64,000 nucleotides of DNA from Diadema setosum (Eukaryota > Echinodermata > Echinoidea > Diadematoida > Diadematidae), in NCBI GenBank assembly GCA_033980235.1, contig CM067069.1, positions 37,571,992 to 37,635,991 of the forward strand, read 5' to 3'. The notes below the pieces were generated by a model that saw only the letters and a list, made by a program, of their open reading frames with translations, was not told where the DNA came from and did not search any database. Made by a program: the position numbers and the translations under genes. Shown one piece after another: positions 2,861 through 38,605 of this stretch (position 1 is the first letter of the stretch; each line of letters begins with the position of its first letter).

Positions 2861-3043
2861 CTCACATGATGATGCTGAGTCAACGGCTGTTGAGAAGAAC
2901 TTTTCAGGCCAGAAGTCGCATGTCAGAGTGAAGCTCGATAGACTTGGCAATGTACACACCCATAGGGCCAATTCTCCTCCCATTGAGGAGTGGTATTTAA
3001 AATCTCTGTCACTGCTTTGAAAATGCAATTTCAGATCGTCAGT
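2861..3043 (-). CDS. LRR cassette exon at 2.9 kb
   Basis: A 183-nt phase 0-0 exon, acceptor TCTACAG, donor GAG/GTAACA. It has TDDLKLHFQSSDRDFKYHSS, then MGGELALWVCTLPSLSSFTL and SASSCE. The conserved Ile-Gln at the start is Thr-Asp and one Arg is replaced by Leu. If the donor is ignored the frame ends at 2828 (tail VTSSERRAYT). I could not find a further LRR exon or a clear terminal exon to its left, so the gene may end here or continue beyond the window. Confidence 0.75.
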
Positions 3044-17500: not shown

Positions 17501-20500
17501 GGCACAACATAAAGGTACAAAACACCTATCGCGTACAAACCTACATGTTTCTACTAATATCAGTTTGTATAGTAAGTGCAACTTTCGAAGATTTTACTCT
17601 CGCGTAGAATTTTTTTGCCCGTGAAATGCAATTATTCCCTCATTACAACTCTAAATCAAAATATTTCTAAAAGACTCATAAGTAGACATACAATGTACTA
17701 CCAAAAAAAAATGAGCAGATAAGTTTACATTTTTATCTATAACTACATTTCGCTTAATCTTGCGAGTAGGCCTACATGTACATTATGAAAGCAAAAGAGT
17801 TATACCTGCCCAACAAACTTTCTTAATCAATATTTACTAACAATTTCAGCTCAATTTTCAATAATCCGCAAGATTTGAAATGACTGCAAATAAAGTGGTT
17901 CAGAATTTTTGCTCTCAGAATTACATCCCATCTTACAGAATATCACCGTCTGTCTGTGGCTTTTGATATCGATATCCAATTTCACGTGACTCACCACTTG
18001 ATCACAGTTCACCATGAATGCAACTCCTGCCTTGGTATGTTCTGACGAGTTAGGTGATAGTGTGTATTCCTGCCATTGTTCTCCCACTGCTCTGGTCGCC
18101 TCCTTAGTATGACATTCAAACGCAACGTCAACGCATAAATCCTTGTCACCTATCTTTATCAAGTCGTTGATAATATCGAGACCAAGTTCTTTCTCTAAAG
18201 CTGAGGCGAAGTAGAGTAAGTAACGGAACTCCAAAGATCGAGGAAGAAGCTTGGTCTTCAGATTGTTGTAGTTGGTATGATCCTTGGAGAATGAATTCGC
18301 AATATACACTCCAGCAATATATTCTTGAAATAATGTGTGGGGAAAAGAAACCGTTGACTTAACGAAGGATGGAACGTTGTCACCACGCCGAAGCTTCTTA
18401 CTCTTGACATTTTTTTTTATTGTCAAAACACCAACTTTGCAACATGTCTCCATGGCAACGCGACACTGCTTGAAATGATCTTCAGGAAATGAAAAATTCC
18501 TGTCCAATAAACCGTTTAGTGATATCTCACTTATTTCTTGAATTGCCCTACCAGCTTCACTTACATTTTCAACAACGTCTTGTGTCTGCAGATTTACACT
18601 CATTTTCGATACGTAGTGCTCTTTCAGGAAAGAGATCATTTCCCCAAAAATCTCCGAAAAGGTTTGCATTTTCATCATTTCTGTTCGTCTCTCTTCACTG
18701 AATTCTCTCCACATGAGGCAGAGCATTGCACTGTAAATTGGAAACGGGGCCATGTTCGACTGTATGAAATCATTTTCCTTCATAAAAGTGATTAAGCTCT
18801 CTGCAAGATCGCCTTTCTTTCGTATGCGAAAGTATTTTCTGATGTAAGTTGATAAGTCCTCCTTGTTAAAGCCTTCGATGTTAACGAAGGTATAAATGTC
18901 GGCAAGATTAATGTTCATTGTGAATTCATGTGTCCTCCATGGCCGAGAGGTCAAAATTACCTTGCATGACTTATATTGTTCTGATGCTAGAATGCGAATG
19001 ATCTCATTGTTGTCTCTGTCTTCCATATTTCCTTTAAACTCGTCAAACCCATCAAATACCAGAAGAACTTTAGCTGGATTTTCTGTGATAAAAAGGCCTA
19101 TCTGGCGTGGTGTTGCGTCATTTGAATCGGAGAGATACCTTTCCACAATACTACCAACACTCTTCTCCACAGGGACATCTCGAAGAGGAATTACAAGCAC
19201 CATGTCCAAATTCTCGAGAATCCTTCCTTGGCACCAGTCCCACGCGATCTTAGCGCAAAGCGTTGTTTTTCCTACACCTCCTTCACCGTGAATAAGAAGA
19301 CGCTTTGAAATATTTTCGTTTTCCTCGTTGGTCAAAATGTCCACATACGTCATTGGTGTTTCATGCATGCTTATCAGACTCAAATTGGTATAAATTTCAT
19401 CCAAGTTAACTCGTTCCATGAAGTTAAGTGGATCAACAGTTACCTTGCGTCGTGTCTTACGGTAGTACGCCTTCAGCTCCTCTTTGCATTGTCTTACTTG
19501 CTGTTTCGTAAGCGCCGGGGTTAACGACAATGCGTTTATATTTGATGGTCCTTGAAGGCAAAGAAAGAAAGAACATCATTACCATAAGTTCGTAATCTTT
19601 CATCCTCCCCATGACCCCCGGTTGATTGTATGTAATTGTACTACTAAAAAAAGGTAGTTTTGTAATACTTATAGGAAATTAAAAAAAAAATCAATGCGGC
19701 AAAAGCTTATCAGGTTGAATCATATCAGTTGCCCTGAAGGTATCTTATGCCAGGTGCAGCTTTGTGAATCACACTTTTTTTCAACATCTTTAGATTCATT
19801 AACATGGTTTAGGAGGGATGTCATAAGTAAAAGTTTATTTGAGTAGAAGAAATGGTTTGCAAATGCAAAGATGGATAGTATGAAAAATATTTTGGGGTGT
19901 TTTTTTTAGGAAACTGTCCTGTCATTTTGAGAGTTCTGCGACTCGTTCTTTTTTGTTCTTTTTTATTACTTTTATTAATTTTCTCTTTTGCTGCTGGCAA
20001 GCAAGGGGAGGGGAGGGGGGGGGGGGGAGGAGGAAGATCTCCGGAAGTCATATTTGTTTTTTTTTTATCTTTTCTTAAACCATTAAGACCGATATTTCAA
20101 CTGAGATATAGCAGAGAAAAACACTTTTTAGTTAATACTGGAGGAAAAATCATATATAGAGATTATTGAACTTAAGCATAATGTGGCTTCAATCAAGTCA
20201 AGCGCTTAAGATTAGATATTTGATATAATAGAATACACTAAAATACATATACACAGATAACAAATACGATTGTTTCATTTCTTGCACTTCATAGGGGTGA
20301 TATTTTGGTTGAGATGGCGATGCAAGTTTTAACTGATAAAATAAATACAAACCACTTATGTGAAATATGAAAGAGCGATAAGATGAATTCAATAATTATC
20401 TGATTATTATCTTTGTTATTATCATTATGATTGCTTTTGTTTTAGGTTTTCCCTGAAAATTTCGCACCTTTGCTAGTTCATTTGATAGAAGGTTCATTGA

Positions 20501-22256
20501 ATTTAGCAAAACCCTTCGTTATCGCACAATCTGTCTTTGAAAATTGCAACTTGGGCGTTTAATACAGCTTTTCGATAGATACATTTGCACATGTGCCTTT
20601 CGAATTCTCAAAAGGGGTGTTCCAATTTGCTTGCACTCTACGTTCATTCAAATTCGCCACCACTCGCCCAAAAGGGCATTTGAGTCATTCAATTTCGCAA
20701 ATTTGCAATCAAATCACAAATATGTTCATTCAAATTAACGTCATGTTATTCTTTTTTGAAAAGGTGAGAACATTTAAACGTGTGAATTTCTATGTGATTT
20801 CTTTTTTTTTTCATTTACACACTGCTAGGCAGTGACAGCAACATACTTTGACCCTATATAGCTTGAGTTTGTAATTCTGCGATGCCCCTTTTCTTTCATA
20901 CATGTCATTATAGGCTTACATGTACCAATACTACAGATTAACTTCATCTTCATACAGTCATGACAGCACAAGTTGGATACAGAAGATATCTCAAAAAGAC
21001 AGAGAAAGAATCAAAGGAACATTTGATGATCATAACCTCGCCTTCCTAGAACTCTGGCCGACACACTCGGTATAAAGCGCTCAACGGCCAAATAAGTTGT
21101 GGCCACATGCACTATCTTCGGACTGGGATACACGATATGCACATTGAAAAAAAAAAAAGAACTGTTGCAAGCCAAAATCTCTTAAATGAATACGAAAATA
21201 TGAAATGTAATGATGCCTATAAAAAAAAAAACTGTGTTGAAAAAATAAGAAAAACAAAACAAAGCAGAAACATGAGTGCTAACTCATGGTTTCCACCATG
21301 GCACATAAAGAATTAAAGTTAAAACCTGAATCCCATCTGAATAAAACGACACAATCTGTATACGGGCGCTGTTCATGTTTTTTTTTTTCTTAAACGATAA
21401 TGTATCTCAAACCCATTATCAATCCTTCCTCGTCAACACGCTGCCTATTCCTTCGTCTGGGGCAGAGTTTCCAGCCACATCCTGTGAAACGTAACAATAC
21501 CCATAACGCTGAGAGCATAATAGTAATGATCAAAATCCGATGTAAATATATATATATATATATATATATGTGACCGTGCACCTCAAAACGAACATAAAGT
21601 CGCACACACTGATTTTGCGTGAGGACTGAAAATAAGTGAAATGGGTCAACATAGCCGAACTTGACTTTTTCATATTTCTGAAAGAGCGGGTCTTCTTTTA
21701 CATTATGCTAAAATTTGGTATCATAAAACGAACGGGAAAGTGTGTTTTTTTAGCAGTTTATCTCGCAAAACATTTTTGGTAGAACAGTGTGATTAGGTTT
21801 GCCTTTAGAATCCCTTTTTCATTTCTGAAAAACCTTGTCCACACTCTTCACTTTCAACTCTAATAACTTTTGAAAGGATTGTGCTACTGCTTTTAAAGTT
21901 GGCATTAATTATGAACAGAATGTGTTAATGAGGCATGCTTAATTTCAGTATAATTTGATAATCCCTTCATTGTTGTTACTCGGGTGGTTTACTTCCTGTT
22001 TTTTGTCCCATTCATAGCACAGCCAACACGGTTTGGTAAAGATTTAGCGCTTGAATAGACACTGTACTTCAAAGCCTCTTTTCTCAGTTCAAACTTTTCC
22101 TGAGTTTGTGCTTTCTTTCCAATATCTAGATAGGTTAGGAGAGTCCATTTGATTTGAGTTATACATCATTCTAAAGCTTAAAGTCTGTTCTTTCAGAATA
22201 TGGTCTTAACTAGAAATTCATGTCTGGCGACTTTTTGTTTGTTTTGAGGTGCAGTG

Positions 22257-22340
<84 letters not shown>

Positions 22341-25300
22341 TGTATAGGGACATTTATTTGAATAATTGATGTGTACGTTCATGCAATGAAAATTATTTTA
22401 AGGTCGATTGTTGTCTCCAATAGACATTTATCTAGCAGTATCTGCAGAATAACAAAGAACTCAATGCCTATAATGTTACGGTTCCGTTACAGTTACAGTT
22501 TCTACCTTTCATAGGAAAGTTTTTCTCTGATCATGCATGGGTATGCTATGACCCTACTATGCGTAACTTTAATTAACGCTAATCGGTCCTAAAACATGCA
22601 ATCTTTTATTTGAAGGAGTGATAAAAGTCATAGTGTCCCGCTCGTTTCAGTGAATCGTGATTTTATGTAGATCGAATGTTATTCGCTTCGATTTGATTGG
22701 TAACGGTTTCCAAGTAAATCAAATTTTCACACCTTTTCGCGGTAGGTAGTCCGGGTGGTATTTTTGCAGAAAGATTCCACCAAGGAGAAATAGGATGGAT
22801 AGGGCGACAGGCACACCAATGGCTAGTCCAATGATGAGACCCAAAGTATCACCTTTTTCTGAAATTTAAAATATAAACAGATAGACAACTCTTGAGCTCA
22901 TTTCTGGAATTTGAATACGTTATAAATGGAAATAACGACGCTGATAATTTCACAACGCGTATATTTTGGTGTACCGTCAAAGAAATAGTCTACTACATGG
23001 GTAAAGCCGTGATGATATTTTCGGCTTATTGCTCAGAAAAAAAAAAGTAAATCATTGTAAGTTTTATTTATTTACCTCTATACTAGATGAAGGAGATCCA
23101 GTGATGATATATATATATACATATAATTATTTTGTACGTTGTATAATTACATTGCGTCTGAGGGAATGATTATTTTACACAAAAATATAAGATCAAGCTC
23201 ACCCAAATCATATTCGAATCAAAATATTTTGAAACATTTTTTTTTTCGTTCCTTACTGTTAGGCAATGGGTTAAGATTAATACATGATCTCGGTATTTGA
23301 ACAATTGATAATAATAATAATAATGAAAGTGTCATGATTTCACGAAACCTGATAAAGTCCGAACGATAATTTCTTTGGTCCACGTTCCATTCAGCGAGTC
23401 ACCGGTAGCATTGCAAGTGAAGGCCTGCTGAGTCCCACGTGGAACTGAAACGGCGATTGTCTCGAGCCTCTCGTATGAGTCGTCAAATAGCGTTTTCTGT
23501 TGTGAAAGTACGGAATGCAGTATCTCTCCCGATTCTTCTGTCCAAAGCATCGAAATATTGGGTTTGAATCCACTGACGACACACGTAAGGTTAATGGAAG
23601 GGGTGTTTGAGGGAGTTTGGTATATACACCGGCTTTGATCGGAATGGTTGTCATCGATGCATTCCTCGATTACATGTTTTGACGCCATCGCTATAGAAAT
23701 AATAGATAGTATTCAAACAAATTCATTTTTCATTTGAATTCAAATCTGTATCCAACAAATATTCTACGCCCTTGTTATAGAAGTCGTCATTGAAAAAGAT
23801 GTATTATTGCTTTCCAACAAAATGGCAAGAGTATAAGAGCATAATGCATATGCACGAGAGACATACGATCCAATACTATATCGTTTCGCGATCATAGCTA
23901 CTCATCAGATTTGCCTTCGGTGAACTTGTAATAATTGAATTCTGCTGCAGTTCTCCATATTTTGAAAGGGCATACGAAGTGAGGTTAACAATCGTGTATG
24001 CTTTAAAGGAAATTGAATATTTACGAAATCCTGCGTCTTTTCTTTTACCTTGGTACGATTTTGATTGTTTTCTGTATCATGCTATTTTGGTTTGTGTGAA
24101 CAGTCGCTATGTCGTTTGTATTACTATTGTAAATTGCGTTATTGATTAACACTGTAATCGACCAAAAAAAAAAAAAAAAAACCCTAACTAACAATACATT
24201 GAGCGGAGTAGTCTGTTGCAATGCATGCGACGCGAGTAATGTGTCTTGCTCCGGGATATACTTATTATACGCACAATTGTTTTTACGCCTAAAATGAGAT
24301 ACCACACATTAAGGAAAACTCATTTTATTCTTCTCTACAACAGATAAAGAGAAAAACTGACACAGTTTTGAGGAGATAAAAAAAGAGTCCAAATAACCCA
24401 AACCAGAAGTGGATGGTCCTGTTTATGTATATAAAAAATATACTGTAAATATAAAGTGTCTGTTAGTTTGAATAGATGGAACGACCGTATGTGGTAAGTT
24501 GTCTTTGACAAAAATACAACAATCTTCGCGGTAATTCCATGACAGTATATCGAATGAATAATGTGACCTCAATAAGATATCAACGACGTTACAGCCCTCA
24601 CCCATGGCAAAGAAAAGTATTAGAAATGTATGAAGACCGTCGGTTTTCGGGATCACATCCAACCAGCATTTCCAATATTAAGACAACGTGGACATCTACC
24701 AGCGATCTCCGCGACTCACACAGAAAAAAAGGTTTGCCCATGCTCAAAACTTGGCTATAGATTTTCCACATTTTTTTTTTTCACTGCATCTTCTTGCAAA
24801 AATAATCTATGACGGATTTTCACCCAACTTGGCAAGGGTGCGATATGATCTGAATTTGCTAAATAAGACCCCAAAACCATCGCCGAAGAGGAAAGTTGAA
24901 GCCTGTTAGTGTCCCTCTTAACTCTGGACTGTTTGATCTTCTTCTGTCGAGTTGGAAAAAAAAGAAGAAGAAGAAGAAGATAGAAATGAGTTACTGCTAT
25001 GAAGACTGTAATGACTGATATCTCATGTTTGATTTTGGCGGATCCAGGGGTGCCCTGATAGGAGGGGGAGCCGGGGCATCAGCATCTTCATACAAAATCT
25101 ATGACAGATATTAACCAAACGTTGGAGGTAGCATTCCTGGGGTAACAGAATTCCATTTTTTTCGAAGGGGCAATAAGTCCGGGGGTTGGGAGACGGGTTT
25201 GGGTGAAACGAAGTCCCAAATTCAAGGGATTTTTTTTTTTATCACGTTAACCACAAATGACGAGAAATGACGATGCTTTATTACTAAATACATTTCATAC

Positions 25301-28300: not shown

Positions 28301-29774
28301 AGATAAATTGACCAAGGAATATCATTGATGAAAACGAATACTGCAAGTCAAATCCAGTCGCTTTCAAAGTCTGTTTTTCTTATATAAGGAATGATTTCAT
28401 GCACTTAATTTCATCACATGGGTTGATTTAAATGCAATACAATGTAAACTTGCTTGTTAAATCCGTCAGGGGTGACCAATAGTCAATATTATACGAATGA
28501 GAGAGAGAGAAAATGTTCTGGTTAGGTAGACCTTAAAGGTAGGGGATACCTTTTACAGACCTCCCAAAATGCAGCAAAACATTAAATATGAACCTCAGAT
28601 GACTTGTTTAGGCCACTGATGAGAAATTTGGAAGTCCACAGTTATCTACAATTTGAATAATGCACAAAACTCAACTACTCAGTAGTTCTGTGTGTCAGCC
28701 ACACTTAAGCCTTTTTGTTGCAGTCTTGCAACAAGCCGTTTTGTTGCAGTCATTTTTTATCTATAAACACAAATCTAAAAGTATAAGAGCTGATGTAATA
28801 ACATATAGAGTGTGTGGCAAGAATGTATATAGAAATGTTTGTAAGTTTTGATGAACTTTCTTCACAAAGTATAGGCCTACATGATGGACACACATGCAGT
28901 GCATGGGTCTGCAAAGGTAGCCTAGTAATGTATTGGAATTTACGGTGAGCCCCGAGAAAAATTCAATTCAAAAGCTAACGGTCAATAAAAAATGTACTAA
29001 ATGTTACCTTCCACTTTCAATACTTTATGGGAGTTTGTAAAATGATACTCTCTTCAACATACCACTGTATTTATACAACTCTTCATTTAAGGCATGCAAA
29101 TGGGATTCCCTACCTTTAATGCATGGATCTATATAAAACATGAGGGAAAAGTCAGAGGGAACATTAACCATGCATGCGTGTATGTATGTGTGTATGTATG
29201 TACGTATAACTGAGTGTATATTATTTTTATGTATATAATCCCATATGTATATGGTGCGAGAGATGGTTCCCTTCCCAAACGTGCACGGTGCCTCATTGTT
29301 GATTGCATACTGAAAGAAATTAGACTGAGGCGGACGTTGCTCTCGATCTTGAGTCTCCTTTTTATTCAGTCAAGCTTTCGGCCAGTCATCAGGCCTTCCT
29401 CAGGATCTACCAACAGAATAGTTATTATCTGAATAACCGGGGCCTGTTTCATAAAACTTGTCACCAATGACAAGTTGTCATAGATGTGACAAGCTACTGA
29501 AATCCTTGCAGCTGATTGGCTGAGAGCAAATTTGTCATAGAAATATGACAGTTGTCACTGATGACAAGTTTTATGCAACGGGCCCCTGATGTGTCATATA
29601 ATAATGTAATGCAATTATGTATGTGGCTGTGTGTGTATGCATCCTTGTACATATAATACGCAACGCAAATAGATATATGAATATAATATATGTATGATTT
29701 TGTTTGTAATTATTATGGTCAAAATTATGAGAAAATATGGTTATTATATGTCAGCAGTTTGATATAAGAATCTA

Positions 29775-29817
<43 letters not shown>

Positions 29818-30083
29818 ATATATGATGTTATTTTGATGATGAGATGAGGCTAGATTGGATTTGTATTGAATTGAATGATTGATTTGTGTACTGTATGTAA
29901 GGAAAATAATTCTGAAGATTGGCAATGGTTATGGAATTGCATTACATATTACGACACATCAGGTTATTAAGATAATAACTACTCTGTTGGTAGATCCTGA
30001 TGAAGGCCAGATGACTGGCCGAAAGCTTGACTGAATAAAAGGGAGACTCAAGATCGACAACAACGTCCGCCTCAGTCTAATTT

Positions 30084-30148
<65 letters not shown>

Positions 30149-33100
30149 TTATATTTATGCAGGTCTGTATGAGTTTGTGTTGTGTGTGTTTGTGTTTTAG
30201 GATGTATGTGTTTGACTAATGTGTAAAACATTAGATATATTCAGAGTGTAAATGTTTAACCACAACGAAAACAGTATTTTCATGTTTTCCACAGAAATTA
30301 GACATCTATTATAATTTAGATAGATTTGCTAAGAATTATTTGAAGTGTATTTGCTATAAGCGCATCTGACGTGCAATCCACTTCATAGTGCGCATATAAT
30401 TTCCGCTGGAATAAACTCATGCATGAATTACACCATCCAATGTTTTCAGATATCCATGCTCTACTCGTCCGCCGATCGTTTTTAGATAGCGTATAGTACA
30501 AATGTGCATGATCGATACCCAAAAGATTATTGACATTGCACGTTAAACACTTTCACTAGGTTCCCATCGTCGCGCGACTCGATATGCTAATATGTACTAT
30601 ACATACCACGAATTGATTCTTAGTCTACGAGTGATCGTGGTGATCTTATCATGGCTTATCACATCTTGAGGTCTATGGTGGTAATCGTGTTGATCGTAGA
30701 AGAATTATTGGACTGTTCGAAAAATAACTACGATCAACAGAATGTCTTTGACTGACATGAAGATTTGATTAGGCCTACCCCTGATGATCAGCACGATTAG
30801 TCCCCGAGTAAGACCACGATTTCGGGCGAATCGAGAAAGTGGAACCAGCTTAGTGAATTCCACGAGAGTGGTAACGTACCATAAAGGATAATCAACACGA
30901 CTGTTTCAATACCGCACGTATCAATATTTACATAATTTCAAAGATTACTTCACTTATGTGAGCTAGATTCCTTTTTTTAATCTTACAACGAAGATTAAAA
31001 CTATCATTAGCAATTGGTAATTTAGCGGTGTACGAAGACTAACTCACATCATTATTTGAGTCGCTATTCTACTGTACAATTGATGAAAACCCTATAAATC
31101 TGATTTTAAGGTTATATATGATAACAGGTCTGTGTCAGTAACGTCACTTTCATGGGCATAATATCATGCATGCCTTAAAGAGGGGCAATCCCTTTTGCAT
31201 TCCTTCCCAAATAGCACGGAACATGACACATTCCATCAAAATGATAAGACTATTGTAAAGCTATAACATTATGTGATATTTGAAGGTTGTTAGTCGTTAA
31301 AATTCAAATAACACACCATTGCTCACCGTAACGTATTCTGCTGCTTAGGCATAGCTGCTGCATTCATTCTCCTGTGGTTGTAATATTATGATACTCATAC
31401 TTCGAACAAAAGATACGCATGTTAAGCTGTCAGAAAGGAAGAATTCGCTAGCTCATTTTACTTTATAATATATAGCAAATAACAACACACCACTTAATGA
31501 ACTAAGTGCATCACACAGATATGTAAAACTGGAGTAGTAGTAGTTCAGATTTGTAATTTGTAAAATTATTCAAATCTGAACGGTCAATTAAATTCAACAA
31601 ATAAAGATCCTCTTGAGTTCGAAATTTACAGAAGGTTGCCATATATTTTGTTCTTCAATACGTAAGGGTTCTCATCAATTTTTCTTTATACTTAAAGCAA
31701 TATTATGAAAGCATCTATTTCAGACATCAATTCACGTCTAAACGGAGCCCGTCTGCACTACACTTTGAATTAAAAGTTTGATACAGATGATGAATCCTGA
31801 TGGTGTAATGGAGAAGAATATTTTATCTTCCAACATCATTTGTTATCAAATTAAAATTAAGCGTTTTGGAGGTATGTAGGAGGCCCGTAGGATTCTTTGA
31901 AAGGGTTGGGGGGGGGGGGGGTTCCGTACGTTATTGATTTTGAGAAAACGGACCTTGGATGTATGTGAAAATGTCGGACTACTTTTTCTCTATAACAAAT
32001 AATATGGAATGTCTTACCACTGATGTATACAATTCAAAAAATTGTCATTACTATGTCATAGAATAATACCTGATAAAATAATGTCCGCGAGTAAGCAAGC
32101 GCTTCACAAATTGATTATTTTCATGTCACACACAGAATTATGGCATCAGAGCATCGTCATCAATGACGCCGGAAGCTTTTAAATGCCCTATATATACAAG
32201 CGCGTTTTTTGTACTCTTGGTTTTTACACCCTAGTCCCACTCGGTCGCTTTGCTCCCTCGCCGAGGATCTCACACCGTAACATAATGTACCCCCTATTTA
32301 TATAATCGTATAGTCCTTCGCACTCATTATTTTTCACTATATTACATTTTTTCCTAGAAATTTGCTTTTAAATGCTCTATAAACGCGACTTTTGTCCTCT
32401 GTTTTCAAAAAAAAATCCCTACCCTGGGAGAAGGAATTCCCCCTCTCACACCCTCCCCCGCTCGGTCACTTGGCTCCCTCTCGCCGAGGATCTCAAACCA
32501 TCACATAAATGTACTCCCGTATGTTATAATCATAGTCCTTCGCACTAATTTTTCCACTATGTTTAATTTCCTAGAAATTTGCTTTTAAATGCTCTATAAA
32601 CGCGACTTTTGTACTCTGTTTTTACAAAAAGTCCCTACCGTGAGAGGTGGTATCCCTCCTCCCACATCCTACCCGTACTGAATTCAGTGTTTCTAGGGAA
32701 AATATGTGAAAAAACATAATTCCTTCCTTAATATTTCAACAACTATTTATCCCATAAAATGGGGTACCAACTTGTAGGATATTTAATTGTCTTTGGTATG
32801 ATATCATTTTTACCGTAATTGGATATTTTTAACTAAAGTTATTCAAAAGGAGTTCAAAAATAATCCGTCTCCTAGCAACGGAGGGCGGCCATCTTAGAAA
32901 TATGCAAATAAGACGCACGCGCAACCCTTTCTTCCGCTGTCGACAACCGGATTCGCAAAACACAGGTTCTTACGATCTTCGAACATATCGATTTTTTTTT
33001 TTTTTTGGGGGGGGAGCACGGGGACCCTTTCTGATCAATTTATGATGTAACCCAATATCGGCCGCCATGAACTACACAGATACTTCCCTTCATTTTGTTA

Positions 33101-36100
33101 TGAACAAAAAAAAATAAGATAGCCGTGGTTCCTTTTAAACTGTAAAAGGCTATTTATCAAGTTCTGTATTTCTTAGCGTTTTTAGCATAAGATTTTTTTT
33201 TTTCACTTTAATCTGAAAACTGTCATGTCTAACTTTTTTCTTAAACTTTTAAATGTTATAATATGTTGTGATTAATTCCACGTTCTTGGAGGGAATCTAA
33301 AAAGACAAGAAACTGTTGATATGGGGAGCTGAATGGATTGAGTCTGGTAACACAAAATAGAAAAAAAAAATATTTCATATAAGGAAAAGAAAGTGTAATT
33401 TGTCTTTCTTACTTCACCGATTTCGATGAGATTTGATCAAGAGATAGCAGTGGAGAACGTACGCAATTGCACGCGGAGACATTATAACCCTTAAATATTG
33501 CTGCAAAACCTATTGAACCATTTCCCCTTTGATGTCGTGTAACTTTGAAAGGAGTTGGTGTATTGGAAAGCCATTTTCACACGATAATAGTTATGTTTTG
33601 GGAATAATTTTAGGAAAATTCAAATGTTATTTGTAAAGGCATATTAAATGTATGGAAAAGAACATTATTACCGAATGCCGTATTTTTTTGGAAAAATGTT
33701 CAAAAACATAATTCCTTCCTTAATATTTCATGACAAAAACTATTTATCCCATCAAATGGGGTATCAACTTGTAGGAAATTTAATTCTCTTCAAAATGATA
33801 CCATTTTTATGGCAATTTGATATTCCTAACTTAAGTTATTCAAAAATAATCCGTCTCCTAGCAACGGGCGGCGGGCATCTTAGAAATATGCAAATTAGAC
33901 GCGCGCGCAACCTTTTTTTCCTCTGGCGACAACCGGATTCGGAAAATTCAGGTTCTGACGATCTTCGGACATATCGTAGAATTTTGTTTTTTTGGGGGGG
34001 GGGGGGTGCACGGGGACCCTTTCTGGCTGCTAGACTATTGCTTTGATATAACAGATTCATTTACGGACTTTTAAAGGTAGATAGTCCCGGTAGAGTAGAG
34101 GGCGCTGTTGATGATACTGCTGATCAACGTTAGCATTGATACGAAGATTACCGAAGTTGAGCTGTCATCAAGAGTAAAGTGCGTAGGTGTTGCTAAGTAA
34201 CGTTGCCTACGTTGTCTTCTCTGCGCAACGCGCAGTCTGTAGTAATGCAAAAGGTGCTTGCATATGTGCTTCGTATTATGACTTCACAAAAAAAGTTTGC
34301 TAAAGTTATTATTCCTCTCAGCCGAATCATGAACCGAACTGTGATCGGACCACTGACTACAGTGGATCGGACTTCTTCGGACTCGGGGAAGTGGGCCAAA
34401 GCGTAAGCGCCAAAGAGGAGTCAATAGCGTTGGTCCTTATAGGAAACTTGCGCCGTGCACCCGCGTACACATTTGACTAAAACATTGGGACGATGCACTT
34501 TTGATAGTGACACACCCGTCTCTTCGAAATATGTTATTATAACAAAGGAGAACTTACAGTAAACTGTCAAAAATGTAGAATTTCCAAAATCCTGAAGGTT
34601 TGCCAGGGTCACGTCACAATAGTAGCGTCCCTCATCTGCCACCTCCAAGTCGCTGATGACGAGGCTAAAGTTCTTGTCGATGTCGAAGCGCTCCTCCACG
34701 CTCTCAAAGTTTCCTTCGACGAATCTAGCTTTGACTGTCCTTGCTTGCTGATCTGAGCCGGTCTCCTTGGACCAGTACACAATGATAGGCTCCTCCTGGA
34801 TGTCGCACTTTAGTAGGATATCTTCCCCTCTCCATCCCTGAACGTCGGGGGCAGTGCCTACTACTGAGGCTAGACGATTAAAAATGTGAATACAACAGCA
34901 AGTTCATGTCTTCATAAATGAGTGAATGAATGAATGCATGCATGGATTAATTCATGAACGTAATAACAACGTATAAGGAAACATAATACTACAGTATTAG
35001 TATAGATGAGAATTGGGCTTTTAACTTTTTGTGAGATACCAAAAAAACACTTATGAAAAAGTACAGAGCATACCATTTTTAAGATGATTTCAAAGTTTAT
35101 TTGATGTAAATCGGGTTTGGAATGAATGAAACATCCAAAACAAAGTAAAATAAAGCGATCGTAATGAAATGTGGGTCCCACACTTCATTGAATCGCTCTG
35201 TTTTGGATATCTCAGCCATTTCAAAACCAATTTTTATCTCCTTAACCCAAACCACAGCGAGAGGCTCCTCCTGGATGTCACATGGAAGTCGCCTATCTTC
35301 CCCTTTCCGTCCCTGAACGTAGGGGGCCGTGTCTACATCTGAGACTAGACGATTGAAATGTGAGGAACACACTGCCATGACACACACGTTAACACCTAAA
35401 TTACGCCATTGTAAACTCTTGGAAGGCATGGTACGGGGATGTCATAGTACAACAAAGCCGTTTTGAGCAACAGATAGATTGATTAACAATTTATCATATC
35501 ATATAGATAAATGTACATCATCTACATAATTGGCAAACAAGGCTTAATTGACGGATTCTTTTTATGAACACCAATGAACAACGTCATTATGAACATTTAA
35601 CCGTTGATGTAGGTTCTTCCGTTCATGGTAGCTTGTAATCTGAGCGAATTACCAATAGCAGGTAATCACTAGACGCCGAGATTCTATTAAGAAACAACCA
35701 TCGAGTGCTAATCTCTTAAAAAATTGATTCTGATCTGTCTTCTCTCAAATGTATTCATAGATCATGTCATGATAATAGAAATAGTTATAATTGCAAATAC
35801 TTGCTAATGTTCTAATAGAGGTAGATCAAAACATCCCTACAATTCAGAGCTTTTATCATGATACCCATTCAAGAGGATGTAATGCTTAAAGCATTGTACC
35901 AGGTATTTGTATCGGGCTGGTGTTAAACCAAAATATCCCCCCCCCCAAAAAAAAAAATAAATAAATAAATAAATAAATAAATATCTGTACCTTCATGGAT
36001 ACGAACATGAAGGTTCGATTGAAAAGATTTATTTTAAACTTTCTTTAATCAACGGATATCCAAGCACAGTTAGACTAATATATAGTAATTGGTCGTTTTT

Positions 36101-38605
36101 AATCAGTATTGCTTCAGCTCTGCAGTGATAATGTAATAGGTCCTAGCAGTGAGTCTTGTATTGATCATATAAATGTGAATAACTTTATGGTCCTTGAAAT
36201 CTTCAAGGGTTATTTCTGAAAGGACGTGATGTGGAAGAAAAAACTCGGTGTTCATTTTAACTTTAGGACACGAAGAAAATCTAGAACTATCGAAATATTA
36301 CACAGTCGGGCATGGAATATAAACGCTATATAGATTATCTTACTAGTATCTCTTCTAAAGTGCACAAGGGTTATAAAAATGGCGCTGTAGTCGTATTTAG
36401 ATAAGAGGTCTCTCGTTGGGTCGCTAACCAGTTTTTACTCAAATGTTTGTAACAGAATTTCTTTAAATAGTTCGATGAAATGCTGATGATCTCAACTCCT
36501 GAACTCCCTGTGTGCCAAAGTTGCATATTGGAGACTTGGAATATAACAGTGCACTATGAATGCCATCTCATTCAGGTACTTGTAGTACCCCCATATCAAC
36601 GAAATACCATTGTGTGCTAGTGTGGAGAATAAATTGAGCAATCTGCTTCACAAATATTCTTAAATAAGTTTTCATGAAGCTGTATTTGTGAGTGTATGTA
36701 TGTGTGTTTCTTGCTTGTTTGTTTGTTTTATGTTTGTTTTCTGTTTGTTTGTATGTTTTGTTTTGATTTGGGTTTTTTGGGGGGTGGTATGTTTTTTATG
36801 TAGAAAACGCCAGGTGTTGGCGCTGGGATTAAATTCTTGGTTAAAATAAGCTGCAGGTAAATACTGCAGCGATGTTTTTCACCAAAAGACTCCCATTACC
36901 TTACTAAAAATGTTTTGTTTGAACGAAACCGTACATATCTACACCATCCAACCAAATTTCACCATCGTAGGAAAATGACATGGACATCTATTCAAAATCG
37001 ATTCGCAATCTTGCATGGATCTGCCATTTCGAATTCACTACCTCCCAGCATGCGACATGCACAATTTAAAAGGTCGTTAAAACAATAATCGAACAATAAT
37101 TGGAAACGTTTCTCCTCACTGACTATTAGTTTCATTTTGTTCACACTTTTGATCCGAAACCTGTGATTATTCTTAGCTGTTGAACAGCGTTGCAATTTGT
37201 TCCATTCCTGTATCAATCAACTCCTTCCAACATTGAATCAGATGATCCACAAGTGAAAGGCCATGAACATGCGTTTTGTTTTTGTTTTGTTGTTTTTTTT
37301 TTTCGTTTCGTTTCGTTTCGTTTTGTTTTTGTTTTTGTTTTTTCTTTCACCAGAAACCATTTTCTTTCAGTTTACTTAACGGCTGCTTACTTCTCCTTTC
37401 TTATTTTTCCTCTTTAGCTTACATTCTTACAACTTTTTTTATGATGACTTAAGTAATCCCTATGATATGTGTTCCGTGTGAAATACGCTTTATTCTATTT
37501 TTTTTGTACATACTTTGTACATTGAAAGAAATAATAATAAAAGAGAGCCGACACTGAGAAGCGTGTGGAGATCACAGGTTTTTGGACGTCATCGGGTTGA
37601 ATAGAAGGGGTTTAAATCAAAGTTGTACATCGAAAACAGCCGCTTCTATTTTTTGTTCGATTTGGTTCGCTATCTGTTATATGTTGCTCCATAGCTCAAC
37701 CACGGTTGTAGAAACAGCTTTCAAAAGTAATAATATTCCAACTTGCCAACATTAATAACTGATAGATTCCAGTGATAGTTGCTCAAAATCTTAAACAACT
37801 GACTTAAGATGCCTTTACTGATGGCTAGGACAATTTTAATCAAATTATCAAATTATCACTTACAAATTACATTCTGAAACAAGCTCTAGAATCGGAAAGA
37901 ACGTTTGTATACTCGTCCTAGCTTGAAAGTAACTTTTGCCTCCCAGATTGGTCCGACGTTGTAGACCTACACTAAAGCAAGGCGAGGGTGAACCCTGCTA
38001 AAAAGTCACTAATGAATCTATCTCTATAATTATGCAATTATCACTTAATTTCCAAAATTACTCAACAACACTGACCGAAAACAAACAACGAAACATAACC
38101 AACAACAATGACCTTAGAAACCTTTTAGTTGTATCATTAGTACATTATTAATCAATTCACAGAAATAAACAAACTGTCTCAAATACAAATGACGAAGTGT
38201 ATGCAATTAACAGAAATATGTTTATCTGAACTGAATTCGGCATGAAACAGGAGGGGAGTAATTTGTATAACACGGTGCCCATAATTATAGGGTAACATAA
38301 CGAAAATGTGCTTTAGAAAAAATGCATACCATATATGAATGCATGCCCTTTCATTGAAAGGGACGTGTCGTTGCAAATAACCATATTGTAAACGTCGTGA
38401 ATTTCTACTCTGGTTTGCCTAATTTGTTTAATTTGTGCCACCATTCAGTGATATCAATCAGTGAGACCAGGTAACCCTCACGTAACACGAGTGAAAGTTC
38501 ATAGAAATATAAGAGTCATATATAGTCACGCTTACCACCAGAGCCACAAAATGCAGAAGAGGCCAATGTTAGGAGCAGAACCAGATCGTATCTTCTATCC
38601 ATCAT
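2861..38605 (-). CDS. Ig-Ig-TM-NACHT-LRR membrane receptor gene (multi-exon, 3' end uncertain)
   Basis: Spliced gene model, at least 1,222 codons if all intact cassettes are used. Exons in transcription order: 38605-38536, 34869-34558, 23690-23349, 22858-22733, 19550-17995, 16317-16156, 15189-15007, 13504-13322, 10001-9819, 7913-7731, 5158-4976 and 3043-2861; a doubtful one lies at 3960-3793. Phases agree at every join: phase 1 up to the NACHT exon, phase 0 afterwards. Predicted protein: signal peptide 1-22, V-type Ig about 28-127, second Ig about 138-240, TM helix about 247-272, NACHT core about 365-700, LRRs from about 803. The known role of NACHT is nucleotide-dependent oligomerisation in STAND-class innate immune proteins. 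The inference is that ligand binding by the ectodomain, or sensing by the cytoplasmic LRRs, controls a membrane-tethered NLR. No DEATH, CARD or PYD domain is visible. The true last exon, transcription start and poly(A) site are not identified, and a fusion of two adjacent genes is not excluded without RNA data. Confidence 0.82.
3793..3960 (-). pseudogene. LRR cassette at 3.9 kb with lost splice donor
   Basis: An acceptor (GATAG) and the opening IQDLNLSIEDSQCHSSMEGD identify a cassette, shorter by five codons than the others (168 nt). Its central region is divergent (WISSMPRLSSFRVKCCYFEF). The usual CAG/GT donor reads CAG/AT, and translation stops eight codons on (TAA at 3768-3766). It is either a dead exon that is skipped, or a terminal exon giving an alternative C-terminus. 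A weak GTACCA donor in phase 0 about 20 nt earlier is a further possibility. Confidence 0.65.
4976..5158 (-). CDS. LRR cassette exon at 5.1 kb
   Basis: A 183-nt phase 0-0 exon, acceptor TTCTACAG, donor GAG/GTAACA. It encodes IQDLKLHFHSSNEDSEYHSS, MGGELARWVCTLPSLSSFTL and FFSTAVDSASSCE. It is closest to the 2.9-kb copy and about 20-25% different from the 7.8/9.9/13.4 group, so it belongs to an older duplication. Read-through past the donor reaches a stop about 12 codons later. Confidence 0.83.
5273..5368. repeat. Short inverted repeat (MITE-like)
   Basis: TCTAACACCACCGAGGT and a nearby TATCAG are matched in reverse by CTGATAGATACCTC and GATGTTAGA. This gives an imperfect hairpin of about 95 bp with no coding content. 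Confidence 0.5.
5466..5502. repeat. (TA)n microsatellite
   Basis: An uninterrupted TA run followed by T9. Apart from the 6651-6728 hairpin, I see nothing recognisable from 5510 to 7040. Confidence 0.9.
6651..6728. repeat. 78-bp hairpin
   Basis: GTTGAGAATGAGAAGGGC at the left pairs with GCCCTTATCATTCTCAAC at the right, and AAGTG with CACTT inside. It is a compact palindromic MITE or a solo foldback. Confidence 0.7.
7048..9089. repeat. Segmental duplication unit A (contains 7.8-kb LRR cassette)
   Basis: A unit of about 2.04 kb beginning AGCATTTACGACATTC and repeated at 9090 and 12593. It holds one LRR cassette and, at about 8395-8560, an old dispersed repeat starting ACCTCCGCCAAGGGAGGAGG. Identity with unit B is very high, especially from 7920 to 9080, so the duplication is recent. 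Confidence 0.88.
7731..7913 (-). CDS. LRR cassette exon at 7.8 kb (duplication unit A)
   Basis: A 183-nt phase 0-0 exon with intact CTGTAG acceptor and CAG/GTGAGT donor. It has the same two-LRR layout as the 9.9-kb cassette, with FFSTAVDSASTCQ at the end. If the donor is not used, the frame continues for about 30 residues to a stop at 7644, giving a short hydrophobic tail. Confidence 0.87.
9819..10001 (-). CDS. LRR cassette exon at 9.9 kb (duplication unit B)
   Basis: A 183-nt phase 0-0 exon, acceptor CTGTAG, donor CAG/GTGAGT. It encodes two LRR units: one with IQKLKLHFESSDKDSEYHSS, the other with MPSLLSFNLTCDFLPEMFF ending in STCQ. It differs from the 7.8-kb copy by four substitutions (two silent, two replacing Ala/Val). 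The intron after it contains the 1.4-kb TIR element at 11091-12502, which lies upstream in transcription. Confidence 0.87.
11091..12502. mobile_element. 1.4-kb TIR DNA element inserted in unit B
   Basis: Termini TGTGACCGGCGACAACGG and CCGTTGTCGCGGGTCACA form TIRs of about 35 bp that extend through TTTCAGGCAAAAGTC. The uninterrupted sequence in units A and C (GAAAGAAAAATGCGTC) shows the empty site, and an AA dinucleotide looks duplicated. No transposase frame is visible. The interior has CCAAT-like and GC-richer stretches (11330-11480). Confidence 0.85.
12593..14693. repeat. Segmental duplication unit C (contains 13.4-kb cassette)
   Basis: The third copy, about 2.1 kb. Its left part matches unit B almost perfectly, while 13570-14560 shows many small differences from A and B. 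It ends where the similarity stops, after TTGATCCATA at about 14692. Confidence 0.85.
13322..13504 (-). CDS. LRR cassette exon at 13.4 kb (duplication unit C)
   Basis: A 183-nt phase 0-0 exon with CTGTAG acceptor and strong CAG/GTGAGT donor. Protein features: IQKLKLHFESSDKDSEYHSY, WVCTMPNLWNFNLTCDF, and FFSTAADSVSTCQ. It is nearly identical to the 9.9-kb cassette. The differences I can see are five bases clustered in about 60 nt, all amino-acid changing: Ser to Tyr, Ser to Asn, Leu to Trp, Ser to Asn. Confidence 0.86.
15007..15189 (-). CDS. LRR cassette exon at 15.1 kb
   Basis: A 183-nt phase 0-0 exon (CTGTAG acceptor, CCAG/GTATAT donor). It starts IQDLTLFINGEDEDSQD, continues with GEDLAKWVCTMPSLSSFSL and ends with SASSCQ. 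Each cassette encodes about two LRR units: one ending in the conserved AxxAxxCQ and one starting with IQxLxL. This copy is the most divergent of the full-length cassettes and its flanking introns are unlike the 2-kb duplicated units, so it is probably an older member. Confidence 0.85.
16156..16317 (-). CDS. Exon 6: first leucine-rich-repeat exon
   Basis: A 162-nt phase 0-0 exon, acceptor ATCAG and donor AAG/GTAAGA. It reads RTLSVQGMTCGKVTSCDLA and later LNKLTIRQSRFHKQFYEIL. The two LxxLxIxxxxF-type units, with a terminal Cys-Lys, match ribonuclease-inhibitor-like LRRs, and phase 0 is the only frame free of stops. It diverges in sequence from the 183-bp cassettes that follow and is probably the fixed N-terminal cap of the LRR region. 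Confidence 0.78.
16318..17994. other. Intron between NACHT exon and first LRR exon
   Basis: AT-rich, with no coding signal or transposon I can recognise. If the splice at 17995 is skipped, translation ends at 17851. Confidence 0.6.
17995..19550 (-). CDS. Exon 5: NACHT domain (STAND-class P-loop NTPase)
   Basis: A 1,556-nt exon (phase 1 in, phase 0 out) coding for residues 284-802. After a basic linker (KQQVRQCKEELKAYYRKTRR) comes Walker A HGEGGVGKTT (372-380), an extended Walker B VLLVFDGFDE (445-454), the sensor-like ILTSRPWR (about 482-489), and the helical/winged-helix hallmark FPHTLFQEYIAG (about 686-697). These are the defining NACHT features of NLR proteins, and all catalytic residues appear intact. 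The linker plus NACHT resembles NLRs in which a DEATH domain precedes it; here the TM exon takes that place, leaving only about 20 residues between membrane and linker. I chose the GTGAGT donor after NCDQV because it is strong and gives phase 0, the only open phase of the next LRR exon. Without splicing, the frame runs 47 more codons to a stop at 17851. Confidence 0.93.
21569..22261. mobile_element. TGTGACC-ended non-autonomous DNA element, copy 1
   Basis: About 693 bp. Starts TGTGACCGTGCACCTCAAAA and ends TTTTGAGGTGCAGTGTCA, so the ends are inverted repeats. It sits inside (TA)n and is shared with 48237-48926 and, inverted, 50520-51225. No transposase. Confidence 0.82.
22262..22340. repeat. 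(TA)n microsatellite
   Basis: About 80 bp of near-perfect TA repeat next to the element end, probably grown from the TA target duplication. Confidence 0.9.
22733..22858 (-). CDS. Exon 4: transmembrane segment
   Basis: A 126-nt phase 1-1 exon. It encodes a polar lead (EKGDT), an uncharged stretch of about 26 residues starting LGLIIGLAIG and ending LLGGIFL, and then a juxtamembrane tail QKYHPDYLPRK rich in basic and aromatic residues. This predicts a single-pass type I membrane helix (residues about 247-272) with the following NACHT domain in the cytoplasm. The acceptor is TTTCAG and the donor AAAG/GTGTGA. The phase fit to both the Ig exon and the NACHT exon is the strongest sequence evidence that these modules belong to one transcript. 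Confidence 0.87.
23349..23690 (-). CDS. Exon 3: second immunoglobulin domain
   Basis: A 342-nt phase 1-1 exon. It contains INLTCVVSGF (Cys164), MLW (Trp177) and QAFTCNATG (Cys220), a C-like Ig fold with a short strand content. Two extra cysteines (138 and 149) lie N-terminal to the core. There are several potential N-glycosylation sites: N161-L-T, N172-I-S, N221-A-T and N228-G-T. This fits an extracellular stalk domain. The acceptor is CTATAG. The donor TCAG/GTTTCG is weaker than the others but is the only one giving the required phase before an in-frame stop at 23332. It sits 11 kb downstream of the V exon, across the window's largest intron. Confidence 0.85.
24798..25350. mobile_element. 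Degenerate TIR element
   Basis: CTATGACGGATTTTCAC with AACTTGGCA on the left is matched in reverse by TGCCAAGTTCGATGAAAATC and CGTCATAG on the right. The interior repeats a related segment near 25090. No coding sequence. Confidence 0.5.
25557..27365 (+). repeat. Tandem dimer of a ~1-kb repeat (forward locus)
   Basis: Unit 1 (25557-26575) and unit 2 (26583-27365) both begin with GAAAGGGTCC, a C tract, an A tract, then CTACGATATGT and GAAGATCGTCAGAACCTG. The same dimer occurs inverted at 32690-34030. Confidence 0.8.
27431..27961. mobile_element. MITE with iterated ACACC/GGTGT motif
   Basis: 531 bp with CACTGTAAAAA and TTTTTGCAGTG ends and a TA duplication on both sides. The interior repeats GGTGTTA or TAACACC more than fifteen times in both orientations. 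Confidence 0.8.
29336..29414 (-). ncRNA. Hammerhead-ribozyme-like core, copy 1 (candidate)
   Basis: The minus strand reads CTGAGGA (fits CUGANGA), a short stem-loop GGCC..GGCC, then GAAA, a possible stem III CTTGA/TCAAG, and an ATC cleavage-type triplet. Outer GTTG/CAAC could pair as stem I. It lies in one arm of an inverted pair with 29986-30061. Confidence 0.45.
29439..29586. mobile_element. Hairpin MITE with CCAAT-containing centre, copy 1
   Basis: GGGGCCTGTTTCATAAAACT at the left is matched by AGTTTTATGCAACGGGCCCC at the right, with the central GCTGATTGGCTGAG. It is related to 51569-51739 and 52561-52711. Confidence 0.8.
29780..29815. repeat. (TA)n microsatellite
   Basis: A TA run between the two hammerhead-like arms. 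Confidence 0.9.
29986..30061 (+). ncRNA. Hammerhead-ribozyme-like core, copy 2 (candidate)
   Basis: CTGATGA (29997-30003), stem II GGCCAG/CTGGCC with loop ATGA, GAAA (30021-30024), stem III CTTGA/TCAAG, and then ATC with the predicted cleavage after 30055. Stem I would be TC/GA plus GTTG/CAAC with an internal bulge. All invariant core bases are present. Such motifs are known in Penelope-like elements and other retroelements; activity is untested. Confidence 0.5.
30087..30143. repeat. (TA)n microsatellite
   Basis: A TA run directly following the second hammerhead-like arm. Confidence 0.9.
32170..32690. repeat. Three imperfect tandem repeats of ~205 bp
   Basis: Each unit starts near TTTTAAATGCTCTATAAACG and the first two contain CTCGGTCRCTT and CGCCGAGGATCTCA; the third is truncated. 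Non-coding. Confidence 0.75.
32690..34030 (-). repeat. Inverted copy of the 25.6-27.4 kb dimer
   Basis: 33010-34030 is the reverse complement of 25557-26575 with few differences, and 32690-33010 matches the start of unit 2. The two loci lie in inverted orientation in the same intron. Confidence 0.8.
34558..34869 (-). CDS. Exon 2: V-type immunoglobulin domain
   Basis: A 312-nt phase 1-1 exon with a CTAG acceptor and a GTAAGT donor. It carries the Ig V-set hallmarks: first cysteine in ILLKCDI (residue 45), core tryptophan in VYWSK (56), and the D-x-G-x-Y-x-C signature DEGRYYC ending at Cys108. A possible N-glycosylation site is N120-S-T. The symmetric phase-1 single-exon organisation is typical of animal Ig domains. 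The domain follows the signal peptide directly, so it would be the membrane-distal, ligand-facing module. A decayed duplicate of this exon lies at about 35170-35344. Confidence 0.9.
35170..35344 (-). pseudogene. Decayed duplicate of the V-type Ig exon
   Basis: The segment begins with the same acceptor context as exon 2 (CGTCTAG) and reads DTAPYVQGRKGEDRRLPC and then DIQEEPLAVVWVKE. It therefore keeps the first Ig cysteine and the tryptophan. Past FNEVWDPHFIT the similarity fades. The second half with the D-x-G-x-Y-x-C motif is missing, and I see no GT donor in phase 1 before the frame stops at about 35097. Its intronic flank also resembles that of exon 2, so it is a tandem exon duplication. 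It could be a pseudoexon or, less likely, a divergent exon using a donor I cannot recognise. Confidence 0.7.
35941..35985. repeat. C tract, A tract and (AAAT)n
   Basis: A simple-sequence block in the intron between the Ig exon and the signal-peptide exon. The remaining intron from 35430 to 38530 shows nothing recognisable. Confidence 0.8.
38536..38605 (-). CDS. Exon 1: start codon and signal peptide
   Basis: Two consecutive ATG codons open a 70-nt coding exon. It reads MMDRRYDLVLLL and then TLASSAFCGSG: a basic start, a leucine-rich core and small residues before the likely cleavage point, which is a classic signal peptide. It ends in phase 1 (one G left over) at a GTAAG donor. The phase matches the Ig exon acceptor at 34869. 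This is the only signal-peptide-like exon I found upstream of the Ig exons. No TATA box or other promoter element stands out above it. Confidence 0.83.

What the first reader, a model, noticed from the sequence alone, without database searches (positions are those of the whole stretch)
17995..38605. A cell-surface Ig receptor fused to a cytoplasmic NACHT-LRR: a membrane-tethered NLR
Seen: signal peptide, two Ig domains, a TM helix and a complete NACHT domain in five collinear minus-strand exons. Each has matching phase 1 boundaries and a valid GT-AG junction, followed by phase 0 LRR exons. Known: NLRs are normally cytosolic with DEATH, CARD, PYD or similar N-terminal domains, and Ig-TM receptors normally signal through ITAM, TIR or kinase tails. 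Inference: the Ig ectodomain occupies the place of the NLR effector domain, so extracellular binding may seed NACHT oligomerisation, or intracellular LRR sensing may be reported at the surface. I do not know of a described family with this order.
Basis: partly seen in the sequence, partly recalled or inferred. Interest (0 to 1): 0.92.

Follow-up and report, generated by a model that had tools for sequence, protein, structure and literature searches.

The report
Ig surface receptor fused to NLR
A sea-urchin-like gene joins an antibody-like cell-surface receptor to a normally internal immune sensor in one protein, a layout already reported in a sea cucumber and here part of a large Diadema family for which I found no description.

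Summary
The signal-peptide, V-type Ig, C-type Ig, TM and NACHT exons are on the minus strand exactly where stated, with matching phase-1 junctions and AG/GT borders. Predicted proteins of Diadema sea urchins contain the same chain: 72 of 169 fetched database proteins have Ig-V, Ig-C, TM and NACHT in one polypeptide, so the fusion is not an exon-chaining accident. Repeats after NACHT fold as LRRs in a relative. A precedent exists: the Apostichopus receptor AjNLRC4 (Ig-TM-NACHT) was reported at the coelomocyte membrane, binding bacteria and driving actin-dependent phagocytosis (PMC8699970). Beyond it: LRRs, a widely shared juxtamembrane exon, and a large Diadema family that looks like one N-terminal exchange for a Death-type domain (moderate support). 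None of 39 other-urchin NLRs listed has homologous Ig/TM modules. Most likely mechanism: the ectodomain binds microbes, the receptor clusters and is internalised, and NACHT-LRR couples this to cytoskeletal or inflammatory signalling. No transcript was available; the genome search did not complete.

The parts
38536..38605 (-). Exon 1 (coding part): ATG and signal-peptide-like hydrophobic N-terminus, phase-1 donor
   Evidence: similar N-termini in P0007, P0009 and P0010
34558..34869 (-). V-type Ig exon, phase 1-1
   Evidence: Pfam V-set E 3.1e-13
23349..23690 (-). C-type Ig exon, phase 1-1
   Evidence: weak C1/C2-set; 69% identical to P0018
22733..22858 (-). Transmembrane exon, phase 1-1
   Evidence: hydropathy 2.76; 71% identical to P0004
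21413..21481 (-).
   Evidence: aligns with GCSWNPC...EGLMMG-type linkers of relatives; one tblastn hit (P0027, 58%)
17995..19550 (-). NACHT exon with P-loop GEGGVGKTT and the following helical part; phase 1 in, phase 0 out
   Evidence: NACHT E 4.1e-23; 5irm and NLRP3 the best solved relatives
16156..16317 (-). LRR exon 1, phase 0-0
15007..15189 (-). LRR exon 2, phase 0-0
13322..13504 (-). LRR exon 3, phase 0-0 (in a tandem copy)
   Evidence: 79% identical to P0007
9819..10001 (-). LRR exon 4, phase 0-0 (in a tandem copy)
7731..7913 (-). LRR exon 5, phase 0-0 (in a tandem copy)
4976..5158 (-). LRR exon 6, phase 0-0; assignment to this gene likely, not shown
3799..3957 (-). LRR-type exon homologous to P0003 residues 863-915; assignment to this gene uncertain, borders not refined
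   Evidence: 92%
2861..3043 (-). LRR-type exon, phase 0-0; assignment uncertain. The terminal exon was not found and the gene may run on beyond the window
   Evidence: (94% to P0004)

Best explanation
One gene encodes a type I membrane receptor: signal peptide, V-type and C-type Ig domains, TM helix, a juxtamembrane exon (two cysteines, basic patch, acidic stretch ending DEEGLIM), then a complete NACHT-LRR inside the cell. It belongs to a large Diadema gene family that most likely arose when Ig-TM-linker exons (all phase 1-1) replaced the Death-type N-terminus of an ordinary urchin NLR. Shown here: the exon chain and the homology; supported but not proven: one origin. Inferred, mainly from AjNLRC4: the Ig domains bind microbes outside, receptors cluster, receptor and cargo are taken in, and the NACHT, now concentrated at the membrane or phagosome, signals to the cytoskeleton or an inflammasome-like complex; the LRR either restrains NACHT or adds a second, cytosolic check.
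For: Exon chain with phases. Collinear Diadema proteins: 165 hits, the 120 listed all Diadema; 72 of 169 fetched proteins carry IgV+IgC+TM+NACHT, 49 D. setosum and 23 D. antillarum by the names in the listings. Alignment with P0009 and P0010 has no gap at the V-C and C-TM junctions; short indels lie at the signal-peptide/V junction (2 residues, P0010), before the linker (7, P0010) and just after it (7 and 6). All 89 rows with an Ig or TM hit, the window among them, fall in one 111-row NACHT clade at 98% SH-like support (FastTree); in a careful tree of 40 chosen rows the 27 rows of that clade are one side of a branch, support 72/93, not starred. Structure of relative P0009: helix 276-304 at the TM, confident NACHT and LRR parts; best solved matches NOD2 and NLRC4. 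The V exon is more variable among the 72 (mean identity 63%) than the C exon (74%) or NACHT (69%); the TM exon is as variable (60%). AjNLRC4: membrane location, Ig-dependent bacterial binding, dimerisation, NACHT-actin binding (PMC8699970: abstract, passages, section 35); Ig binding to caspase-1 after internalisation (PMC11932488: passages).
Against: No transcript or proteomic evidence was available; the Diadema proteins are predictions. I saw no function measured in any urchin member. AjNLRC4 is reported to lack LRRs and to have a second TM, and no holothurian protein came up when the Ig-TM-linker part was searched, so carrying its mechanism over may fail. The strict acidic dileucine form [DE]xxxL[LI] is in the window linker but in only 6 of 53 relatives' linkers (shuffle mean 1.3, maximum 6). 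The Ig part of the P0009 model is of low confidence. One-clade support in the careful tree is moderate, and the FastTree run warned of long branches meeting. The model without the linker exon fits 11 of 125 relatives better. 11 of 39 other-urchin NLRs have hydrophobic stretches upstream of NACHT by simple hydropathy, so membrane attachment of NLRs may not be special to the Ig family.
Confidence: 0.6

Rival explanations
1. Two neighbouring genes: an Ig-TM receptor with a short tail ending soon after the TM or linker exon, and a separate NACHT-LRR gene with its own start.
For: If the linker donor is not used the frame stops soon after (EGLIMGLRYIIV*); TM-exon read-through stops after RKGVKI. Some Diadema predictions end without NACHT (P0098, P0110), and 29 of 118 Diadema rows of the NACHT tree lack both Ig and TM hits. 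AATAAA or ATTAAA occur 7 times between 22900 and 19400.
Against: 72 of 169 fetched proteins join all four modules; no Death-type domain in the window and no in-frame ATG directly upstream of the NACHT acceptor; the linker exon is phase 1 on both sides and aligns with relatives' linkers.
Confidence: 0.05
2. Alternative splicing makes both: a full Ig-TM-NLR and NACHT-less Ig-TM forms that act as decoy, co-receptor or brake.
For: Short-tail Diadema predictions with Ig-TM and a different tail (P0098, P0110, P0101); database names mention isoforms for several members, mostly D. antillarum; atypical donors at the C-type Ig and linker exons.
Against: No isoform of the window gene was seen; the short forms may be separate genes or prediction errors.
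Confidence: 0.3
3. Inside-out sensing: the LRR-NACHT detects a cytosolic ligand and changes the Ig ectodomain, which other cells read, as butyrophilins do with an internal B30.2 domain (recalled).
For: The domain order V-C-TM-juxtamembrane-internal sensor is the same; the best, sub-threshold Pfam match of the C-type Ig is the butyrophilin Ig-C family; LRR exons in recent tandem copies suggest that the LRR is still evolving.
Against: The V exon is the more variable Ig module, which suits outside recognition; AjNLRC4 experiments support outside-in (PMC8699970).
Confidence: 0.12
4. Opposite topology, Ig inside and NACHT outside, as reported for AjNLR-new.
For: PMC13133943 reports this for an Apostichopus protein with Ig, TM and NACHT (abstract and passages).
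Against: Here an N-terminal hydrophobic signal-like stretch precedes the Ig domains and a single TM is followed by a basic patch (RKGCGWKLCPRRRNR), which by the positive-inside rule (recalled) puts NACHT inside.
Confidence: 0.03

Closest known systems
AjNLRC4 of Apostichopus japonicus (PMC8699970; PMC11932488)
   Same: Ig ectodomain, TM, internal NACHT; reported Ig-like 31-132, Ig 251-353, TM 483-503. The spacing between its two Ig starts (220) is nearly that between the two V domains of the V-C-V-C Diadema protein P0001 (16 and 234, i.e. 218).
   Different: Reported with a second TM after NACHT and no LRR; about twice the ectodomain of the window gene; its sequence was not in hand, so common descent is not tested.
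AjNLR-new of Apostichopus japonicus (PMC13133943)
   Same: Ig, TM and NACHT in one protein; reported as membrane receptor for Vibrio.
   Different: Reported with the Ig between two TMs and reversed topology (NACHT outside).
Death-type NACHT NLRs of sea urchins (S. purpuratus, Lytechinus, Diadema)
   Same: In the other urchins 32-41% identical to Diadema P0007 over 42-69% of the query part; Diadema Death-type NLRs are the nearest outgroups of the Ig clade.
   Different: 36 of the 39 other-urchin proteins match the Death-type N-terminal profile and 0 of 39 have a hit to the window's Ig or TM exons.
NOD2, NLRC4, NLRP3 (solved structures)
   Same: NACHT and LRR fold.
   Different: Cytosolic, with CARD or PYD effector domains (recalled).
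Butyrophilins (recalled)
   Same: V and C Ig, TM, juxtamembrane part, internal sensor domain.
   Different: Internal domain is B30.2, not NACHT-LRR; no B30.2 in the Pfam scan of the model.

Membership tests
NLR (NACHT-LRR) | NACHT NTPase with P-loop | tested here: met
   Pfam NACHT E 4.1e-23, GEGGVGKTT; P-loop residues invariant in alignment A1 of 46 relatives
NLR (NACHT-LRR) | C-terminal LRRs | tested here: met
   No Pfam LRR hit, but the homologous repeats of P0009 (about 850-1085) are modelled as alternating strand and helix, block pLDDT 66 to 96; the window's exons are homologous to them
NLR (NACHT-LRR) | N-terminal Death-fold effector domain | tested here: not met
   Death-type profile: no hit in the six frames of the window (best E 3.2); 14 of 14 Death-annotated NLRs found as a positive control. 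Other effector types (CARD, PYD) were not sought by profile in the window
Ig-TM-NACHT receptors (AjNLRC4 type) | Ig domains N-terminal to a TM, NACHT C-terminal to it | tested here: met
   relatives
Ig-TM-NACHT receptors (AjNLRC4 type) | Absence of LRR, as reported for AjNLRC4 | tested here: not met
   LRR exons follow the NACHT exon
Ig-TM-NACHT receptors (AjNLRC4 type) | Sequence homology of the ectodomain with the holothurian proteins | tested here: inconclusive
   Search with the Ig-TM-linker part of P0125 among proteins of about 980-3110 aa: 46 hits at E<=1, 45 Diadema and one fish hemicentin; the search needs shared 5-residue words; AjNLRC4 sequence not in hand
Ig-TM-NACHT receptors (AjNLRC4 type) | Membrane location, microbe binding, internalisation | not testable with these tools
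   Needs experiments in urchin coelomocytes
Butyrophilins | Internal B30.2 domain | tested here: not met
   None in the Pfam scan of the 917-residue model

The most novel reading that the evidence does not exclude
Diadema urchins carry a large surface-NLR family: dozens of genes in which a diversified V-C Ig ectodomain is wired by a dedicated juxtamembrane exon to a complete NACHT-LRR, arising from one exchange of a Death-type domain for Ig-TM and followed by at least one reversal. Each receptor would be a two-site detector, microbe outside through Ig and effector or damage inside through LRR, using NLR assembly rather than an ITAM, TIR or kinase tail as the output of a plasma-membrane receptor.
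Probability: 0.35. Interest if true: 0.8.

Novelty: new variant of a known kind. Interest (0 to 1): 0.55.

Why it matters
NLRs are textbook cytosolic sensors. A surface NLR with an Ig ectodomain has been reported for sea-cucumber proteins, one of them without LRR. A multigene urchin family with LRRs makes the question of how an NLR works from the membrane testable in animals with accessible immune cells, and shows how phase-1 exon modules let NLRs and Ig receptors trade parts. Diadema is also ecologically important and subject to mass die-offs (recalled), so its immune receptors are of practical interest.

Tried and rejected
Two-gene reading: rejected as the main account because relatives join the modules and no Death-type domain or ATG directly precedes the NACHT exon.

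Acidic dileucine sorting motif as a family-wide feature: 57 linkers were extracted from the 120 proteins, and 53 unique ones shorter than 50 residues kept. 38 of 53 fit the loose form [DE]xxxL[LIM] against a shuffle mean of 1.9 (maximum 7 in 1000 rounds), but only 6 of 53 fit the strict form (shuffle mean 1.3, maximum 6). The rows are close relatives, so the loose count is not independent evidence; kept only as a hint. Motif meaning is recalled.

Death domains by Pfam: of 14 Diadema proteins without a recognised Ig that I scanned (P0112, P0079, P0126, P0127, P0128, P0105, P0092, P0117, P0071, P0073, P0077, P0080, P0087, P0099) only P0112 passes the Death cut-off; P0087, P0071 and P0080 have sub-threshold Death matches and the other ten none at the limits used. 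The profile was built from 12 of these, so their own hits to it are by construction; that it finds all 14 Death-annotated urchin NLRs is why I call them Death-type.

Identity of the species: nearest proteins are all Diadema, but no row of the NACHT tree came closer than 71%, so the window may be an unannotated paralogue or another diadematoid. Not settled.

Structure of the V exon alone without alignment: mean pLDDT 63.5, strands only; not used further.

Gene models fused with transposon parts (P0016, P0035, P0124) were counted but are plainly imperfect predictions.

Literature: the listings of searches (20 of 25 papers shown) show no paper on Ig-NACHT genes of Diadema. The two D. setosum genome papers (PMC11066563, PMC13264686) hold none of the words NLR, NACHT, immune or immunoglobulin in the text held (term searches only). 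The library holds open-licence papers only.

Full report
What is there. On the minus strand of the window a single open chain of exons runs from 38605 down to at least 15007, and probably to about 4976 or further. Further phase-0 exons of the same repeat type are at 13504-13322, 10001-9819, 7913-7731, 5158-4976 and 3043-2861. The first twelve coding exons read as 1184 residues without a stop; the terminal exon was not found.

A missed exon. Between the TM and NACHT exons lies 21481-21413, a 69-base phase 1-1 exon coding GCGWKLCPRRRNRQRVDEEGLIMG with its split end codons. In P0009 the same place reads GCSWNPCRGQARTQRSYVEGLMMG. 69 of 83 fetched proteins with both TM and NACHT hits have the cysteine motif between them. 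The model with this exon matches 82 of 125 relatives better by more than 5 bits, the model without it 11, with 32 ties; some relatives therefore may skip it or use another cassette. Its features (two cysteines beside the membrane, a basic patch, an acidic stretch with DEEGLI) look like a juxtamembrane anchoring and sorting segment; that reading is recalled knowledge and inference, and the strict sorting motif is rare in relatives (6 of 53).

Is the fusion real? The strongest evidence is homology. The 917-residue model (without linker) found 165 proteins among the 7991 candidates scored; the 120 listed are all predicted proteins of Diadema setosum or D. antillarum, the best about 55-67% identical over most of the model. 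Of 169 proteins fetched in three searches, 72 contain IgV, IgC, TM and NACHT: 49 D. setosum, 23 D. antillarum, species assigned from the listings. These are predicted proteins, each standing for a cluster at 90% identity, so the count is only a rough guide to gene number. tblastn of the 120 proteins listed finds in the window only the modules of this gene, the LRR-type exons, a decayed second V exon near 35336-35238 and one short weak match.

Modules. Pfam sees a V-set domain (3.1e-13) and NACHT (4.1e-23) on the single exons; the C-type Ig is below cut-off on its own but passes C1-set in relatives such as P0101. The NACHT exon's best solved relatives are 5irm (rabbit NOD2) and NLRP3. The model of relative P0009 (1139 residues, 46 sequences, mean pLDDT 70.2) has a helix at 276-304 that covers the TM, confident NACHT and helical parts, and from about 850 to 1085 alternating strands and helices typical of LRRs; its Ig part is of low confidence. 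Foldseek ranks NOD2 and NLRC4 first. Pfam has no LRR hit in the window's repeats, so the LRR label rests on this fold and on homology.

Origin. A search with part of P0007 reached beyond Diadema: 161 hits, 120 listed, 39 of them from Strongylocentrotus and Lytechinus. None of these 39 has a hit to the window's Ig or TM exons, and 36 of 39 match the Death-type N-terminal profile. Against a simple contrast, 11 of the 39 have hydrophobic stretches upstream of NACHT by a plain hydropathy scan; these do not resemble the TM exon and were not followed up. A FastTree NACHT tree of 157 rows (the window and the 156 of 169 proteins with a NACHT part of 400-700 residues) puts all 89 rows with Ig or TM hits into one 111-row clade (98% SH-like), with P0127, P0112, P0105, P0126 and P0092 (Death-type) and P0117 (N-terminus missing) outside it. 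In a careful tree of 40 selected rows the 27 rows of that clade form one side of a branch, but with support 72/93, not starred. Inside the clade are 22 rows without Ig or TM hits; six (P0071, P0073, P0077, P0080, P0087, P0099) have a Death-type N-terminus, sub-threshold or absent in Pfam, which suggests a secondary exchange back; five others (P0079, P0081, P0103, P0106, P0108) keep a linker-like N-terminus and look like truncated predictions. The window gene groups with P0003, P0009 and P0010 (100/99), with P0121 and kin, at most 71% identical in NACHT. Its species is not settled.

How it probably works. By position the Ig domains are outside, and the NACHT-LRR inside next to the membrane. The published relative in layout, AjNLRC4, was reported at the coelomocyte membrane, binds bacteria and polysaccharides through its Ig domain, dimerises and is internalised on infection, and its NACHT part binds beta-actin and supports Arp2/3-dependent uptake (PMC8699970: abstract, passages, section 35); later work reports that its Ig domains bind caspase-1 after internalisation (PMC11932488: passages). 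I take the same outside-in scheme as most likely, with the LRR as a restraint or second sensor. In the family the V exon is more variable (mean pairwise identity 63%) than the C exon (74%) and NACHT (69%), the TM exon being as variable as V (60%); this is weak support for the V domain as the contact part.

Known or new. Ig-TM-NACHT is published: AjNLRC4 (2021) and AjNLR-new (2026; abstract and passages). The published domain positions of AjNLRC4 fit the V-C-V-C-TM-NACHT layout of Diadema P0001 closely (distance between Ig starts 220 and 218), yet a search with the Ig-TM-linker part found no holothurian protein, so shared descent is open. Differences from AjNLRC4 are the LRRs, the linker exon, the size of the family and the host class. 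I therefore call it a new variant of a known kind. The literature searches named under Tried and rejected found no description of the Diadema family.

Noticed in passing
window 7047-14689: Three tandem near-copies (95.6-99% identical), each holding one LRR exon: a recent amplification of LRR exons inside the gene.
   Followed up: partly
window 21566-22265: A roughly 700-base repeat in the TM-linker intron, 93% identical to 48234-48930 and 84% to an inverted copy at 50525-51228.
   Followed up: no
window 25547-26948 and 32680-34037: Inverted copies of a 1.4-kb repeat (86%) in the long intron between the two Ig exons, with further partial copies.
   Followed up: no
window 35238-35336: Remains of a second V-type Ig exon upstream of the used one (79% over 33 residues to P0098).
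   Followed up: partly
window 57982-58275: Reverse-transcriptase fragment on the plus strand (Pfam RVT_1 E 4.6e-9).
   Followed up: no
database protein P0101 (Diadema antillarum): Same Ig-TM-linker front but a different cytoplasmic tail without a recognised domain: the front may be shared by several output tails.
   Followed up: partly
database protein P0151 (Diadema setosum): Ig-TM followed by a part of the NLR core without a P-loop: possible surface NLR without NTPase, or a prediction error.
   Followed up: no
database proteins P0053, P0057, P0059, P0064 (Diadema antillarum): The juxtamembrane linker is extended by tandem repeats of a PNxPEQCHEESECLRG-like unit.
   Followed up: no
database proteins P0001, P0002, P0008: Doubled ectodomain V-C-V-C before the TM; in P0001 the spacing is close to that published for AjNLRC4.
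   Followed up: partly
database proteins P0130, P0133-P0135, P0138, P0139, P0141-P0143, P0155, P0161 (other urchins): Hydrophobic stretches upstream of NACHT by plain hydropathy in 11 of 39 other-urchin NLRs: perhaps other membrane-tethered NLRs, perhaps gene-prediction artefacts.
   Followed up: no
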